From assembly GCA_025800105.1 (NCBI GenBank), contig JAOXSG010000611.1, forward strand, positions 1 through 46,735: a DNA stretch of 46,735 nt. The letters run 5' to 3'. The position numbers and the translations under genes were made by a program. The notes under the pieces were generated by a model. The model made no database searches, had not been told where the DNA came from, and saw nothing but the letters and a program-made list of their open reading frames with translations. This DNA comes from Cohaesibacter sp. Its GTDB lineage: Bacteria > Pseudomonadota > Alphaproteobacteria > Rhizobiales > Cohaesibacteraceae. This document shows positions 5,144 to 22,719 of the stretch, piece by piece. Every line of letters starts with the position of its first letter. Positions within the stretch are counted from its first letter, which is position 1.

Positions 5144-7279
5144 TTAGGCAGCTGCGACCTTGTCTAGGAAATTGTTGATCGCGCCACGCAGCTGGTCTGT
5201 CTCGCTGGAGACATTTTGTGAGGAATTGAGCGCTGTATCAGCGGATTGGGATGTTTCCTCGACAGCATTGTTCACGCCCAGCATATTTTCGGTCACCGAT
5301 TGCGTGCCAATGGCAGCCTGCTGGACATTGTTGCTGATTTCAATGGTTGCAGATCCTTGCTGTTCGACAGCGGCAGCAATGGCGGAGGTAAAGGTCTGTA
5401 CCTCTTCCATCACCTGGGTGATGCCCTGAATATTTTCAGCCGCTTCTCCGGTGGAGCTTTGTATCCCGGAAATTTGCTGGGAGATTTCCTCTGTTGCCTT
5501 TGAGGTTTGGTTGGCAAGCTCTTTGACTTCAGAGGCCACAACGGCAAAGCCTTTGCCCATTTCGCCAGCTCGTGCCGCTTCGATGGTGGCGTTCAGGGCC
5601 AGAAGATTGGTTTGTTCGGCAATGTCCTGAATGAGAGAGATCACAGAGCCGATTTTCTGTGATGCATCGGTCAATTCCATCACCTTGGCATTGGTGACTT
5701 CTGTTGTCTGGGCAGCTTGGGCAACAATATTGTTGGTTTGGGCGATTTGTGAGCCGATTTGCTCAATGGAAGCGGATAATTCTTCTGCTGCTGCGGCCAC
5801 TGTATGCACATTGGTCGAGGCTTCCTCGGAGGATGCAGAAACATTGGTGGAGAGCGAAGAGGTTTTGCGTGCCTGATCAGAGAGGGAAGAGGCAACCTTG
5901 TTCATGGAGCTTGCATTGTCTGATAGATTGCCCAAACGGCTTGAGACTTCCTCTTTGAAGCTTGTGATCAAGTCGTCAATCTGGCTTTGGCGCTCCAATT
6001 GGGCTTTGGCGGCTTGTTCGCTCTCAGCTGCCAATTTGTTTTGTTGCTCAACATTGTTGCGGAAAGCCCCAATGGCACTGGCGATAGCACCCAGCTCGTC
6101 TTTGCGATCCAGCTCTTTGAAGGAAATATTGGTGTTGCCTTTGGCCAGTTCGCCCGCACGATCCACGAGCAAGCGGATCGGGTTAACGATGCTGCGCGAG
6201 AAGAGCAGAGAGGCGATCATGGCACCGAGCAAAATGAGGCTGGTGATCATGAAGGTCGCATTGCGCTGAGCGACAATGGGTGCACTTACTTCGTCAACCG
6301 CCTGGATTGCAACCACTTCATAGGGGATATCGTGGAAAGTAAAGCCATGGCTAAAAGCAATGAATGCGTCGTCTCTGTAGCCGTGCAACAGCCCGGTTTC
6401 ACCACCTTCCTGTATTTGAATTTCTGCAATTCTGGTTTGCAGAATGTCATTTTTGTTGCTGGTAAAGGTGGAATCGTTGCGCATCAAACGATCAGAGCCG
6501 ACCAGCAAGGTTTCGCCGGTTTGACCCAATTTTGCGTCGGCGGACATGATTTCATTGATCGCATCAATGGGCATCTGGAAGGCCAAGACGCCGATTTTCT
6601 TGCCTTCGCTCAAAATTGGTGCGGCAATGAAGCTTGCCGGGGCGTCATTGCTGGGGGCATAGGGATGAAAATCGATGAAGGAAATTTTATCGTTGGACGC
6701 ATTTATGGTTTGCTGGAAGATTTTTCCCAGATCTGTATCCCGCCATTTTCCTGTCACCAAATTGGTTGCATAGTCCGCTTCCTTGAAAACGGAATAGACC
6801 AGATTGCCGTCCATATCGATGAGGAAAATATCATAATAACCGCGCTCGGATAACAGGGTATTGAACCATGGATGATATTGGACATGGGCGATATCATAGC
6901 CGGTATATCCCCCCTGCATTAGCTTATGCTTGCTGCCTGTGGGATGTGGATTGTCGTGAATATAGGCCTTTTGTAAATCCTGTTCGGCGGTTGCTCCCAG
7001 TTGCTCCCAGTTTCTTGAAAAAGCCTGTATGGCGCGTCTGACATAAGGACTTTCAACGGTTACTTTCAAATCCTGATCAATGGATGTCAAATAGGCTTTG
7101 ATTGCTTCGCTTCGAATTGTGGCTGCGCCATCCATACGTTCTTTGGTCAAATGCGCGACCATGCTTTTGGTGGAGGTGTAACTGTAAAAGCCTAACGATA
7201 GGGCCATCGTCAGTGTGATCAGTGAAATTACTGCGGGTAATTTCACTGACAGACGAACATTTTTCATCGATGCGAACAT
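5144..7279 (-). CDS. Methyl-accepting chemotaxis protein with periplasmic Cache-type sensor
   Basis: Transmembrane chemoreceptor of 711 residues. Order: transmembrane segment (about 14-33), large periplasmic region (35-340) resembling a double Cache domain, second transmembrane segment (344-361), HAMP (362-415), then a long coiled-coil signalling domain (about 470-711). The hairpin tip carries the canonical [19 protein letters not shown], where CheA and CheW bind. AAGGA upstream of the ATG at 7279 supports this start. No che genes lie nearby, so it must signal to an array encoded elsewhere. The ligand is unknown; double Cache domains usually bind amino acids, amines or organic acids. Confidence 0.93.
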
Positions 7280-18329: not shown

Positions 18330-19451
18330 TCAGTTCGTTGAAAGGCAAGTTTTTAACGACTTGATGTTATAGCGGATCAGATCGGCGTAAAGCTGGGGGC
18401 CAGCTTTTTGAGCGCGACCAATTGGATCCAATGCACCGAGTTTTGTTGTGGTATTTTCGACCAGAACAGGCACAATCTTGTCAGAGAATTGTGGTTCGGT
18501 GAACAGACATGTGGCCTTTGTTTTGCTCAGTTTTTCGCGGATTTGCTTTACACGAGCTGCGCCGGGCATAACGCCGGGTTGCAGCATGATGGAGCCAACT
18601 GCTTCCAGCCCAAAGCGCTCTTCCAAATAATGATAGGCATCATGGAAGACAAGAAACGGGCGCTTGCCAAGATTGGCCAAATCTGTTTTGCCCTCTGCAA
18701 TCACCTTGTTCATCTCAGCAATGAAGGCGTCTTTGTTTTTGGTGTAAGTGGCTGCATTGTCCGGGTCGTGCTCGCTTAATTCGTTCGCAATGGCTTTGGC
18801 CATCGCAATGCCATTTTGCGGATCAAGCCAGATGTGATTGTCCATGCGGTCTTTTTCGTGACCATGATCATCATGCTTGTCGTGAGCATGTTCGTCATGT
18901 TTTTTATGGTCATGATCATCATGCTTGTCATGAGCGTGCTCGTCATGTTTTTTGTGATCGTGATCATCATGTTTGTCGTGAGCGTGGTCGTCATGTTTTT
19001 TGTGATCATGATCATCATGCTTATCATGGGCATGCTCGTCATGATGATCATCATGATCCCCATGGCTGTGCTTTTCCCAATCGTTGCCGCTGCGCAAAGG
19101 CAAGCGAATGATGTCTTTGGCGTCCATCAATTCCAGCAGATGGGCTTTTTTCGGCAAGGTTTTGAGCGGGTCGATCAGGAATGTTTCGATATCAGGGCCA
19201 ATCCAGATCACCAGATCGGCTTTTTGCAGAGCTTTGGCTTGAGAGGGGCGAAAATCTGCGCTGTGAGGTGAGGCATTTTGTGGCACCAGCATATGTGCCT
19301 TGCCAACATCGCCCATAATGGCCTGTGTGATGGAATGAACCGGTGCAATGGTGGTTACGACATTGGGGGCCGCAAAGGCATTGCTGGCCATTGCCATGCT
19401 GCCAGCCAGAAGTGTTGCTGCCAATGTGCGGTTTATTTTGCGCGCAGTCAT
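18330..19451 (-). CDS. znuA: Zinc ABC transporter substrate-binding protein
   Basis: Periplasmic zinc-binding component of the ZnuABC uptake system, 373 residues. A signal peptide ends at SNAFA (about residue 28). Expected metal ligands are present: His in APVHS, His in DNHIWLDP, and His in FHDAYHYLEERF, plus a late acidic residue. Between them (residues 128-199) is a very long His/Asp/Lys loop made of about four 16-residue units; the family has such a loop but it is rarely this regular. A palindromic Zur site overlaps the promoter, predicting repression when zinc is plentiful. The permease and ATPase genes are not in the window, so znuA is separated from znuBC or they lie elsewhere. Confidence 0.95.
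   Translation of the reverse strand: MTARKINRTLAATLLAGSMAMASNAFAAPNVVTTIAPVHSITQAIMGDVGKAHMLVPQNASPHSADFRPSQAKALQKADLVIWIGPDIETFLIDPLKTLPKKAHLLELMDAKDIIRLPLRSGNDWEKHSHGDHDDHHDEHAHDKHDDHDHKKHDDHAHDKHDDHDHKKHDEHAHDKHDDHDHKKHDEHAHDKHDDHGHEKDRMDNHIWLDPQNGIAMAKAIANELSEHDPDNAATYTKNKDAFIAEMNKVIAEGKTDLANLGKRPFLVFHDAYHYLEERFGLEAVGSIMLQPGVMPGAARVKQIREKLSKTKATCLFTEPQFSDKIVPVLVENTTTKLGALDPIGRAQKAGPQLYADLIRYNIKSLKTCLSTN
18855..19070 (-). repeat. Tandem 48-base repeats encoding the ZnuA histidine loop
   Basis: In-frame repeats encode units of the form HDKHDDHDHKKHDEHA. Neighbouring units are almost identical in DNA, so copy number is likely to vary between strains. The loop probably captures or buffers zinc at the mouth of the binding site. 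Confidence 0.85.
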
Positions 19452-19515: not shown

Positions 19516-19677
19516 GACAGTTATCATTTTGTTCGTCTATATTCTGATTGTTGAATATTTATATCGGCCAAATGGCTGATTTCTGCTGTTTTGTCTGCTT
19601 TCTTTGTTTTTTGTTAACCGTCATTGGTCAGAGTGATTGGTTAATTACCTATAATTTTGAAGAAGATTGAGGCTGTG

Positions 19678-21177
19678 ATGCTAAAATTGAAGCGGCGCGA
19701 GGCGCGGGATCACCATGATTTTGAGCAGGTTGATCTGCCGGGCATACAAGGCAATGATCCCACTCAGTCAGGTGATGAAGGCTCTGCACAGAGACCTTGC
19801 ATGGATGAGGGCCTGTTTCGCACTGTTGTTCATGATCTCAATGGCCTTGGTCTGGAATTGGCTGATGTGGCGGGGCAGATTGAGCAGTTAAGCGGCGAGA
19901 CCACTATGGTTTTCGATTCTTTTTCGCAGTTAAAAAGCTCTGCCGGTATGGTGCAAGAATCCAATGATCGGATCCATGCCGCGGCCACTGCCTCCTATCA
20001 AGTGGCCGAGCAGACATCAGTTGATATGGCGCGCAGCCGTGAAATGGTTGAGACGACCAATGCCAAAATTGCTGATTTGATGCAGGCGGTGGGTGGTATC
20101 AGCACTCAGTTGCAAGGTTTGCAAGAGGCCTTTGGGTCTGTGCGCGATGTGGCGGGGGCTATTGATGCCATTGCCCGCCAGACCAATTTGCTGGCGCTCA
20201 ACGCCACTATAGAAGCGGCCCGTGCGGGTGAGGCGGGCAAAGGTTTTGCGGTTGTGGCCAGTGAAGTCAAGCAATTGGCCGCGCAAACCAGCAAGGCAAC
20301 CGAGACCATCGGTGAGACCTTGTCTGATTTGGACAAAGAGGCGGACTTGCTGATTGAGTTAAGCGTGCAAGCCACAGGTGCCATGAGCGATGTTGAGAAC
20401 AGTTCCAGTTCCATGCATGACGTTTTGCAAGCTCTGGATGGAGCCTTTGAGACCATTCGTCAATCTTCGCAGGATATTGAAAGCGGGGTTGCAGAAAATA
20501 ATCAGTCTCTGCGTTCGCTTGTCGGGGATGTCAATGCGGTGCATGGGGCTTTTGAAAGCAATCAAAGTGGGTTGACCTCTGCCTCAAGCCGAATGGTTTC
20601 TGCTGCCAAGTTATCGGATAAATTGGTTGCGACATCCTCTGTTGGCGGACTTGAGACAGAGAATACCTTTTTCATTGAGACGGTGCAAAAGCTGGCTCAA
20701 CAGATATCCGACGCTTTTGAAGCGGAAGTGAATGCCGGTCGGATCAGCGAACAGGATTTGTTTGATCAGAGCTATCAACCCATTGATGGCACTAATCCGC
20801 CGCAAATGATGGCGCCTTTCACCTCTATGACAGATCGAGTGATGCCTGATATTCAGGAGCCGATTGTGGCAGAGCATGACGCCATTGCCTTTGTGGCGGC
20901 GGTTGATAAAAACGGTTATTTGCCAACTCATAACAAGGTTTTTTCCAAACCTCAGGGCAAAGACCCGGTTTGGAATGCTGCCAATTGCCGCAATCGTCGT
21001 ATTTTTGATGATCGGGTTGGGCTGGCTGCCGGGCAAAGCCGGGAAAAGTTCCTGCTGCAAACTTATCGCCGCGATATGGGCGGGGGCAAATTTGTGCTGA
21101 TGAAGGATCTATCAGCCCCTATCTATGTGAAAGGTCGTCATTGGGGTGGGGTGCGTATGGGCTATAAAGCGGGTTGA
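19678..21177 (+). CDS. Soluble methyl-accepting chemotaxis protein with C-terminal sensor domain
   Basis: Cytoplasmic chemoreceptor of 499 residues with no transmembrane segment. The signalling coiled coil occupies about residues 40-325 with the canonical tip [19 protein letters not shown]. The C-terminal 150 residues form a compact domain with the signature [29 protein letters not shown] and [17 protein letters not shown]. This domain recurs at the C-terminus of many alphaproteobacterial receptors and is probably a PAS/Cache-like sensor. The order is therefore signalling part first, sensor last. The start at 19678 has TTGAGG upstream; a TTG seven codons earlier is less likely. No pentapeptide tether for methylation enzymes is seen at the end. 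Ligand unknown. Confidence 0.9.
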
Positions 21178-21221
21178 TTTTTGTTTCTTTTTTTCTCTCA
21201 CGGCTGCGCCATTGAACATGT

Positions 21222-21315
21222 CTTCACGCTATTCCTGATCTAACGATCAGGGCTCCAGACGGGGCGCTTCGCGCTTGCCTATCGGCCGTCAGAAAAGGAA
21301 GGATTTCCTTTTCTG
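21222..21315 (-). repeat. Structured module C (inverted copy)
   Basis: Read on the minus strand: stem CAGAAAAGGAA / TTCCTTTTCTG (11 pairs), mini-hairpin GCC-GATA-GGC, hairpin GCGC-GAA-GCGC, hairpin CCTGATC-GTTA-GATCAGG, then GAATAGC. About 22 extra bases separate this end from the outer repeat AGCCGTGAGAG, as if an insertion had occurred. Confidence 0.75.
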
Positions 21316-21354
21316 GGTTCTTGTGCCTATTGAAATTTTTGAGGGAAAAGAATT

Positions 21355-21453
21355 CGGCGGAAAAATAGGTTTCCGCCGGGAGCCGCTAGGCGACCGAACC
21401 GAATGGTTCGCACTCCCGTAGGCCCTGATCGTTAGATCAGGATTAGCCGTGAG
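21355..21453 (+). repeat. Structured module A
   Basis: Stem CGGCGGAAA / TTTCCGCCG (9 pairs), mini-hairpin GCC-GCTA-GGC, hairpin CGAACC-GAAT-GGTTCG, hairpin CCTGATC-GTTA-GATCAGG, end AGCCGTGAG. GGGAG (21378-21382) can also pair with CTCCC (21413-21417) to enclose the middle two hairpins. Confidence 0.8.
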
Positions 21454-21464
21454 GGGAATGGTTT

Positions 21465-21562
21465 CGGAGAAAGCAATCACGCTTTCTCCGGGAACCGATA
21501 GGTGACCGGGGCTAACGCCCCGCGCCCTCGCAGGCCCGGCCAAAGGCCGGAATAGCCGTGAG
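21465..21562 (+). repeat. Structured module B
   Basis: Stem CGGAGAAAGC / GCTTTCTCCG (10 pairs), mini-hairpin ACC-GATA-GGT, hairpin CGGGGC-TAAC-GCCCCG, hairpin CCGGCC-AAA-GGCCGG, end AGCCGTGAG. It aligns with module A base for base in the linkers while the stems differ in compensated fashion. Confidence 0.8.
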
Positions 21563-21573
21563 AGAAAAACAGC

Positions 21574-22719
21574 TTAAATACTCTCTTCCAGCAATTTGGT
21601 TGCGACCTCTAATGTGACGGGTAAGGGGTTGCCGCCGCAGCTTGGGTCTTCTATGGCCATGGCCGCGAGATCTGGGATGCGGTCTTTGGTGACACCCAGC
21701 TCGGATAGTTTTTTCGGCACGCCCAGCTCTTCTGACAGGTTCATCAAAGCGGCAAAGAAGCCATCAAAGCCGCCTTCGATATTGAGATAACGGGCCAAAG
21801 CCTCGATGCGTCCTTCAATAGCGGGGCGGTTATAGGTGAGCACCGCTGGCATAACCACCGCATTGGTCATGCCGTGATGGGTGTTAAAGACTGCGCCGAT
21901 TGGGTGGGAGAGGGCGTGCATGGCACCAAGGCCTTTTTGGAAGGCGGTTGCGCCCATAGCGGCAGAGGCCATCATATGGCCGCGGGCCTCAATGTCATTG
22001 GGGTCTTTGGCAACTTTTGGTAAATTCTCCCACGCAAGGCGCATGCCTTCCAGCGCAATGCCTTGGCTCATTGGGTGATAATGCGGGGAGCTATAGGCTT
22101 CCAGGGAATGGATGAAGGCATCCATGCCGGTGCCAACGGTGATCATTTGTGGCATGCCGACGGTTAGCTCAGGATCGCAAATTACCACGCTTGGCAGCAT
22201 TTTGGGATGGAAAATAATCTTTTTGACATGAGATTGAGAGTTGGTGAGCACGCCTGCGCGGCCCACTTCCGAGCCTGTGCCCGCTGTGGTGGGAATGGCA
22301 ATATTGGGGTAGATGGCATCAGCATCGGCCCGTGTCCACCAATCGCCAATGTCTTCAAAATCCCAGATGGGGCGAGTTTGATCGGCTTGAAATGCAATCA
22401 GCTTGGCAAGGTCCAGACCAGAGCCACCACCAAAGGCAATGACGCCATCATGGTTGCCCTCTTTAAAGGCCTTTACGCCTGCTTCGAGATTTTTCTCGGT
22501 TGGGTTGGGGTCAACATCGGCAAAAAGCCCACGGCCCAGCCCTGCCTCTTCCATCAGATCAAGGGTAGAGAGAGTGATCGGCAGATTGGCCAGCCCCTTG
22601 TCGGTGACCAACAAAGGCTTTTTCATGCCAGCGGCAGCGCAGGCTTCGCCGATTTCTTTAATACGGCCAGCGCCGAAACGGATGGGTGTGGGATAGCCCC
22701 AATTCGCAGTCAGTGTCAT
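21574..22719 (-). CDS. Iron-containing alcohol dehydrogenase
   Basis: Group III (metal-dependent) alcohol dehydrogenase of 381 residues, oxidising an alcohol with NAD(P). The nucleotide-binding GGGSGLDLAK and the metal ligands in GMDAFIHSLEAY and in MHALSHPIGAVFNTHHG are intact. It is the last gene of the leftward catabolic operon, four bases after the aldehyde dehydrogenase stop. That pairing suggests it makes the aldehyde which the neighbour then oxidises. In the proposed pathway the substrate would be a gamma-glutamylated amino alcohol; that is inference from context. Confidence 0.93.
   Translation of the reverse strand: MTLTANWGYPTPIRFGAGRIKEIGEACAAAGMKKPLLVTDKGLANLPITLSTLDLMEEAGLGRGLFADVDPNPTEKNLEAGVKAFKEGNHDGVIAFGGGSGLDLAKLIAFQADQTRPIWDFEDIGDWWTRADADAIYPNIAIPTTAGTGSEVGRAGVLTNSQSHVKKIIFHPKMLPSVVICDPELTVGMPQMITVGTGMDAFIHSLEAYSSPHYHPMSQGIALEGMRLAWENLPKVAKDPNDIEARGHMMASAAMGATAFQKGLGAMHALSHPIGAVFNTHHGMTNAVVMPAVLTYNRPAIEGRIEALARYLNIEGGFDGFFAALMNLSEELGVPKKLSELGVTKDRIPDLAAMAIEDPSCGGNPLPVTLEVATKLLEESI

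What the first reader, a model, noticed from the sequence alone, without database searches (positions are those of the whole stretch)
21190..21569. Three-copy structured intergenic element with inverted outer ends
The whole gap between two convergent genes is palindromic. A perfect 16-base inverted repeat bounds it, and inside are three related modules of 94-99 bases, two in the same direction and one inverted. All three end in the same or a closely related sequence (AGCCGTGAG, or AGCGTGAAG in the inverted copy). No known insertion sequence, terminator or CRISPR has this layout. Likely classes are a mobile mosaic repeat (as RIME/BIME elements are), a miniature element moved by a REP-type transposase, or a structured RNA family.
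Basis: seen in the sequence. Interest (0 to 1): 0.8.

Follow-up and report, generated by a model that had tools for sequence, protein, structure and literature searches.

The report
Mobile, flipping multi-hairpin repeat family
The gap between two genes is filled by a non-coding repeat built from hairpin modules that also occurs elsewhere in this genome and in relatives, comes and goes between species and can lie flipped at the same spot; it looks like an undescribed family of an already known class of small mobile bacterial DNA repeats.

Summary
In detail: 21190-21569 is bounded by a perfect 16-bp inverted repeat and holds three related modules, two on + and one on -. It belongs to a dispersed family: 13 of 16 blastn matches in the own genome lie on five other contigs. 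A covariance model of the core finds modules in 16 of 61 relatives and 43 of 397 genomes of the order, but 3 of 386 others in a class-wide draw. Modules are chains of hypervariable, almost purely Watson-Crick hairpins with conserved linkers, ending GAATAGCCGTGAG. Copies are present or absent at orthologous sites, nearly identical at non-orthologous loci, and vary in tandem number. At 3 of 6 loci comparable with a 93%-identical relative the element is inverted in place, this one included. Best reading: a non-autonomous mosaic palindromic repeat that works like REPIN/RIME elements. A REP-type (Y1) transposase is not supported: absent from 9 of 16 carriers. No Rfam match; the motif occurs in no relevant paper of the held library. 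The mobilising enzyme and any cellular role are unknown; an RNA role is not excluded.

The parts
21190..21205 (.). left terminal inverted repeat (TTTTTCTCTCACGGCT)
   Evidence: the orientation switch relative to G008 falls in this repeat
21554..21569 (.). right terminal inverted repeat, exact reverse complement of 21190-21205
21220..21316 (-). module 1, subtype B (ends GAATAGCGTGAAGAC): hp1 21234-21251, hp2 21264-21274, small hairpin 21277-21286, hp3 21289-21316
   Evidence: sequence; 98% identical over 101 bp to a copy at an unrelated locus of G010; no R2 hit
21317..21352 (.). centre between the two facing modules
   Evidence: sequence
21353..21453 (+). module 2, subtype A: hp3 21355-21378, small hairpin 21382-21391, hp2 21395-21410, hp1 21424-21441, end ATTAGCCGTGAG
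   Evidence: R2 hit 21397-21453, 43.5 bits
21460..21562 (+). module 3, subtype A: hp3 21465-21490, small hairpin 21495-21502, hp2 21507-21522, hp1 21536-21550, end GAATAGCCGTGAG; the corresponding module is present four times in tandem in G008
   Evidence: R2 hit 21509-21562, 66.2 bits (it was among the 26 sequences that built the model); fold
19657..21177 (+). flanking gene: MCP signalling domain protein
   Evidence: PF00015
21574..22719 (-). flanking gene: iron-containing alcohol dehydrogenase
   Evidence: PF00465

Best explanation
The segment is one copy of a non-autonomous, dispersed, mosaic palindromic repeat family found mainly in Hyphomicrobiales. The unit is a roughly 100-nt module: hp3 - conserved linker with a small hairpin (GGAACCGATAGGTGACC in this genus) - hp2 - linker (CNCGCAGGCC) - hp1 - GAATAGCCGTGAG(AGA). 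Modules occur alone, in tandem, or as facing pairs whose GTGAG ends point outward and form terminal inverted repeats; here it is a facing pair plus one tandem module. Shown: dispersal, presence/absence at orthologous sites, change of tandem number, in-place inversion with the switch lying in the terminal repeats. Inferred: an enzyme acting in trans recognises the conserved ends on a folded single strand and moves the unit into short intergenic gaps near gene ends; recombination or template switching between the outward ends flips facing pairs; slippage or unequal crossing-over changes tandem number. In the host it probably serves at most as a passive 3'-end hairpin block between converging transcripts.
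For: Multicopy: 13 of 16 blastn matches in the own genome lie on five other contigs, some overlapping; R2 finds 15 modules in G000, 21 in G008, 43 in G010, 2 in G017, none in the other 14 same-genus genomes. Order-wide and patchy: 43 of 397 genomes, 22 of 137 genera (at most 14 candidates per genome scored, so counts are lower bounds). Dispersal: module B is 92-98% identical at three loci of G010 over 93-101 bp and 96% at a fourth over 78 bp, none orthologous to the window locus, while the flanking genes of the two genomes are 77-83% identical. Presence/absence: of 10 loci put in the flank query (8 G010, 2 G008), 6 could be compared in another genome; at 5 of 6 (L042, L044, L045, L049, L050) at least one genome lacks the module, at 1 of 6 (L046) both others carry it; R2 has 0 matches up to E = 1 in the nine stretches without it and in the MCP-ADH gaps of G010 and G017, and blastn with the window element finds only a 31-nt hp1-like match in one of them, L196. 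Inversion: local alignment scores inverted/same orientation, G000 against G008: 234/37 here, 211.5/78 (C1189), 131/76 (C937, partial); not inverted at C393 (20.5/249), C250 (11.5/107), C899 (14/184). So 3 of the 4 loci with outward-facing ends are inverted and 0 of the 2 one-way arrays. G010 shares G008's orientation at C1189, so the flip there lies on the G000 side. Covariation 0.510 against 0.138 in shuffles. Intergenic: 6 of 121 modules lie inside an ORF of 200 aa or more; gaps with modules are convergent in 18 of 43 against 15 of 115 without (p = 2.7e-4) and divergent in 3 of 43 against 31 of 115 (p = 0.008).
Against: No mobilising enzyme was identified and no target-site duplication could be read, because intergenic DNA is too diverged between the genomes compared. 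Some copies are syntenic in three species (upstream of an SMC-type gene: G000, G008, G010), which fits vertical inheritance. One site without a module (L196) keeps a 31-nt hp1-like hairpin, so some 'empty' sites may be losses rather than sites before insertion. G000 and G008 are fragmented draft assemblies (1224 and about 160 contigs); misassembly is unlikely with a 16-bp terminal repeat but reads were not seen. C937/C35 is rearranged, with one 100-bp part in the same orientation. Which orientation is ancestral at the window locus is unknown.
Confidence: 0.75

Rival explanations
1. A structured RNA or 3'-UTR element (bidirectional terminator, mRNA stabiliser or small RNA), selected for at convergent gene ends, that spreads only secondarily.
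For: Strong covariation; hp3 has G-U 14 versus A-C 4 on the GTGAG strand; enriched in convergent and depleted in divergent gaps; GTGAG end within 30 nt of a facing stop codon in 26 of 63 cases (ORFs of 100 aa or more); two hairpin-plus-T-run sites in the region; syntenic copies in three species.
Against: hp1 and hp2: 3 G-U and 4 A-C in 1205 pairs, no RNA-type excess; CM-aligned pairs 26 G-U versus 32 A-C (where 320 further cells are other mismatches, many from shifted register); terminator-like sites no more than in shuffles (2 versus 1.8); copies absent at orthologous sites; no Rfam match.
Confidence: 0.2
2. REPIN-type elements moved by a Y1 tyrosine transposase (RAYT).
For: Two inverted ends around a spacer, hairpin folding, clusters and tandem arrays, as described for REPINs (PMC3116915, passages). 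Y1_Tnp is somewhat commoner in carriers (7 of 16) than in non-carriers (12 of 45), but p = 0.22.
Against: Y1_Tnp missing in 9 of 16 carriers, including G052 with 86 modules; the own genome is only 65% complete, so its absence there says little, but G008, G017, G044 and G052 are 90% complete or more; modules end in GTGAG, not GTAG, and are about 100 nt with three to four hairpins.
Confidence: 0.06
3. A miniature element (MITE) of a classical insertion sequence with terminal repeats TCTCTCACGGCTATTC.
For: Terminal inverted repeats, 100-400 bp, dispersed.
Against: No autonomous relative was noticed (none was systematically sought) and no target duplication seen; the internal hairpins are hypervariable but paired, unlike a decayed insertion sequence; single modules without the second terminal repeat also appear at sites empty elsewhere (L049).
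Confidence: 0.15

Closest known systems
REPIN / BIME (paired REP elements)
   Same: Outward-facing inverted units, hairpin folding, clusters and tandem arrays, intergenic (PMC3116915, passages).
   Different: Module about 100 nt with 3-4 hairpins and hypervariable stems, GTGAG rather than GTAG end, no dependence on a Y1 transposase seen, in-place inversion observed.
RIME1/RIME2 (Rhizobium intergenic mosaic elements)
   Same: Mosaic palindromic intergenic elements of about 100 nt in the same order (recalled; only the title of the original paper seen, in the reference list of PMC2873474).
   Different: R2 finds nothing convincing in S. meliloti plasmid pSymB (best E = 0.875; the chromosome was not searched); the RIME letters themselves were not available here.
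CIR elements (Caulobacter, Brucella)
   Same: About 110 bp, two arms, intergenic, alphaproteobacterial (PMC2229807, passages).
   Different: No GANTC in the window element and 12 in 207 modules against 62 expected by shuffling (flanks similarly poor); R2 nearly silent in a class-wide draw.
Bru-RS palindromic repeats
   Same: 103-118 bp palindromic intergenic repeats in the same order (PMC2267715, passages).
   Different: Sequence comparison not made.

Membership tests
Mobile interspersed mosaic palindromic repeats (class) | many intergenic copies in varying number and orientation | tested here: met
Mobile interspersed mosaic palindromic repeats (class) | presence/absence at orthologous sites | tested here: met
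   5 of 6 comparable loci
Mobile interspersed mosaic palindromic repeats (class) | target-site duplication | tested here: inconclusive
   intergenic flanks too diverged
REPIN moved by RAYT | GTAG-tagged short REP hairpins | tested here: not met
   module ends GTGAG, multi-hairpin
REPIN moved by RAYT | co-resident Y1 transposase | tested here: not met
   absent in 9 of 16 carriers, one with 86 modules; present in 7 of 16
RIME | sequence similarity to RIME1/2 | not tested
   RIME sequences not available; indirect: best R2 match in pSymB has E = 0.875
CIR | GANTC at the loop of one arm | tested here: not met
Bru-RS | sequence similarity | not tested
   no comparison made
Known Rfam RNA | covariance-model match | tested here: not met
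   0 matches up to E = 1 in 20900-21900
MITE of a classical IS | autonomous IS with the same ends | not tested
   no IS collection on hand and no systematic search made

The most novel reading that the evidence does not exclude
A family of non-coding invertible DNA cassettes, scattered at convergent gene ends, that are moved and flipped in place by an unidentified single-strand or site-specific recombination enzyme other than a Y1 transposase, so that orientation is a heritable, reversible switch of what sits at the 3' ends of the neighbouring genes.
Probability: 0.15. Interest if true: 0.75.

Novelty: new variant of a known kind. Interest (0 to 1): 0.5.

Why it matters
It adds an apparently undescribed repeat family to a large bacterial order, with stems that vary freely while pairing is kept and linkers that vary little, which points to an enzyme or fold still to be found. 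In-place inversion at orthologous loci gives a direct handle on how such palindromic repeats recombine, and their position at convergent gene ends makes an effect on transcript ends testable.

Tried and rejected
Plasmids and phages by distant blastn with the 421-bp query: no match. Viral contigs: one pattern match, L204, without the conserved linkers around it and taken as chance. In genome contigs a few matches in unrelated taxa (Gluconobacter, Deltaproteobacteria, Hymenobacter, Lachnospiraceae, Prevotellaceae; L075, L091, L097, L101, L102) were taken as chance and left out of the context counts; R2 scores three of them weakly (E 0.018-0.038) and two not at all, so 121 of 124 hits were kept.

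The 84-aa reading frame 21289-21543 (-) has no Pfam match and crosses hairpins of varying length; taken as spurious. R2 models the subtype A core: it gives no window hit for module 1 and only 19.2 bits for its G008 counterpart, so copies of subtype B are undercounted. A first hairpin extraction mis-set the hp1 start in many rows and was replaced. Of the 18 counts in the hp3 test, 3 G-U and 3 A-C come from one L053 palindrome read in both directions. The tRNA control for G-U versus A-C (16 tRNAs, 3 versus 1) is too small to calibrate the test. With a 100-aa ORF cut-off 45 of 121 modules seemed to lie in ORFs, with 150 aa 24, with 200 aa 6: short frames in GC-rich palindromes mislead. GANTC is rare in modules but also in flanks, so its scarcity is not special. 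In the flank search a seventh locus, L039, had both flanks in G017 about 2 kb apart and was not examined; L040, L043 and L051 could not be compared.

Papers: passages read in PMC2873474, PMC3733652, PMC10969869, PMC2267715, PMC2229807, PMC2884548 and PMC3116915; search listings only for the rest; the original RIME paper is not held. The motif search found one paper, unrelated.

Full report
What is there. The intergenic gap 21178-21573 is almost wholly one element. Its ends, 21190-21205 and 21554-21569, are exact 16-bp inverted repeats. Inside are three modules: module 1 on the minus strand (21220-21316, subtype B) and modules 2 and 3 on the plus strand (21353-21453, 21460-21562, subtype A). 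The neighbours converge: an MCP-signalling protein and an iron-containing alcohol dehydrogenase. Folding is far beyond chance (z = -14.2 for the whole as single-stranded DNA, -6.2 for module 3 as RNA).

It is a family. With 421 bases as query the window's own draft genome (3.57 Mb, 65% complete) gives 16 blastn matches: the window itself, two within it, and 13, some overlapping, on five other contigs. Of 61 genomes, own included, 11 have a blastn match. Reading each copy in the direction that ends GTGAG gives one plan: hairpin hp3, linker with a small hairpin (such as GCC-GATA-GGC), hairpin hp2, linker CNCGCAGGCC, hairpin hp1, GAATAGCCGTGAG. A model of the hp2-hp1 core (R2, built from 26 sequences) finds 15 modules in G000, 21 in G008, 43 in G010, 60 in G030 and 86 in G052, in all 16 of 61 genomes; 43 of 397 genomes of the order, 22 of 137 genera; but only 3 of 386 other genomes in a draw from the class that includes some of the same order, two of the three with 8-10% contamination and the third with four weak matches. 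Searches scored at most 14 candidates per genome and R2 misses subtype B, so counts are lower bounds. Named carriers among the 80 loci with R2 support include Hyphomicrobiaceae, Methyloligella, Rhodomicrobium, Devosia, Tepidamorphus and Anderseniella records, nearly all metagenome assemblies, and Henriciella, which belongs to another order, Hyphomonadales. The window's order is inferred to be Hyphomicrobiales because contig 32 of the same-order genome G044 has the length and hit position of a named Hyphomicrobiaceae record. The window's genus is not named by any search.

Hairpins. Over 81 distinct aligned modules, 86% of pair cells are standard pairs and the covariation score is 0.510 against 0.138 in shuffles and at most 0.075 with partners slid (the alignment was fitted to the model and some of its rows built it). 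The stems are almost purely Watson-Crick: hp1 743 pairs with 3 G-U and 1 A-C, hp2 462 with 0 and 3 (weak hairpins, 33 and 41 rows, and duplicates were left out, which favours perfect stems). hp3 has 14 G-U and 4 A-C among 779 pairs (p = 0.03; 3 of each from one palindrome). Counted on the model alignments instead, there are 2141 Watson-Crick, 26 G-U, 32 A-C and 320 other cells. RNA selection alone predicts a G-U excess; only hp3 shows one, and folded single-stranded DNA would give it too. So pairing is clearly kept, but the level (RNA or DNA) is not settled.

It moves. Module B of the window is 98% identical over 101 bp to a copy at an unrelated G010 locus, with others at 92-96%, while the flanking genes of the two genomes are 77-83% identical. 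Ten loci were sought by their flanks in three genomes; six could be compared; at five of the six at least one genome lacks the module, at one both others carry it. The stretches without it have no R2 match up to E = 1 and no blastn match to the window element except a 31-nt hp1-like piece in one, L196, perhaps a remnant. The window's own locus in G017 has the two genes with another gap sequence and no module; in G010 further sequence, apparently coding, lies there, also without a module. No target duplication could be read.

It flips and multiplies in place. G008 has the same two genes at 93-94% identity, but its element is inverted between the terminal repeats, carries about 100 bp of extra sequence, and has the module-3 unit four times in tandem at a 108-bp step instead of once. 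Of six loci comparable between G000 and G008, three are inverted (this one, C1189, and C937 in part) and three are not (C393, C250 upstream of an SMC-type gene, C899). The four loci with outward-facing ends give three inversions, the two one-way arrays none. At C1189 the third species G010 agrees with G008, so the flip lies on the G000 side. At the array upstream of the SMC-type gene there are 3 modules in G000, 1 in G008 and 4 in G010. These are draft assemblies and no reads were available.

Where it sits. In the named loci (75 of 80 kept), with ORFs of at least 200 aa, 18 of 43 gaps with modules are convergent against 15 of 115 without (p = 2.7e-4) and 3 of 43 divergent against 31 of 115 (p = 0.008); 6 of 121 modules lie inside such an ORF. 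Where the GTGAG end faces a stop codon (ORFs of 100 aa or more) the median distance is 45 nt, 26 of 63 within 30 nt. ORFs were called mechanically; the loci were gathered by the motif itself and several come from the same genomes, so the counts are not fully independent. A terminator role is plausible, but terminator-like sites in the window region (2) are no more than in shuffles (1.8).

What it is not, or not shown to be. It has no Rfam match, no match in plasmids or phages, and its motif strings occur in one unrelated paper only of the held library (topic searches listed nothing recognisable as this family). It is not a RAYT-dependent REPIN on present evidence: Y1_Tnp is missing from 9 of 16 carriers; it is present in 7 of 16 carriers and 12 of 45 others, p = 0.22. 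It lacks the GANTC of CIR elements and is not seen in S. meliloti pSymB (chromosome not searched).

Verdict. A new family of a known class, non-autonomous mosaic palindromic repeats, with two less usual features: freely varying but strictly paired stems, and inversion in place. How it is moved and whether orientation matters to the cell are open.

Noticed in passing
L032 about 5921-6025 (G008) and L199 about 340-395 (G008:C102): The roughly 100-bp extra piece in G008's copy of the element contains an AT-rich palindromic sequence that also occurs at another G008 locus, so it may be a second small mobile repeat.
   Followed up: no
L043 about 630-715, L048 about 1425-1480, L175 about 440-570, L177 about 570-630: In G010 another palindromic sequence (GATACGC...GCGTATC) sits inside the hp2 region of several modules: nested repeats.
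   Followed up: no
L048, L050, L051, L178: A third recurring hairpin in G010 (CCGAAAAGTTGCAGACTTTTCGG type) is also found inside modules.
   Followed up: no
L176 (G010), L190 (G008), L191 (G000): A one-way array lies directly upstream of an SMC-type gene (PF02463 in G008) in three species, with 4, 1 and 3 modules and different stems.
   Followed up: partly
window 18330-19451 (-): ZnuA-type zinc-binding protein (PF01297) with a long tandemly repeated His/Asp-rich stretch.
   Followed up: no
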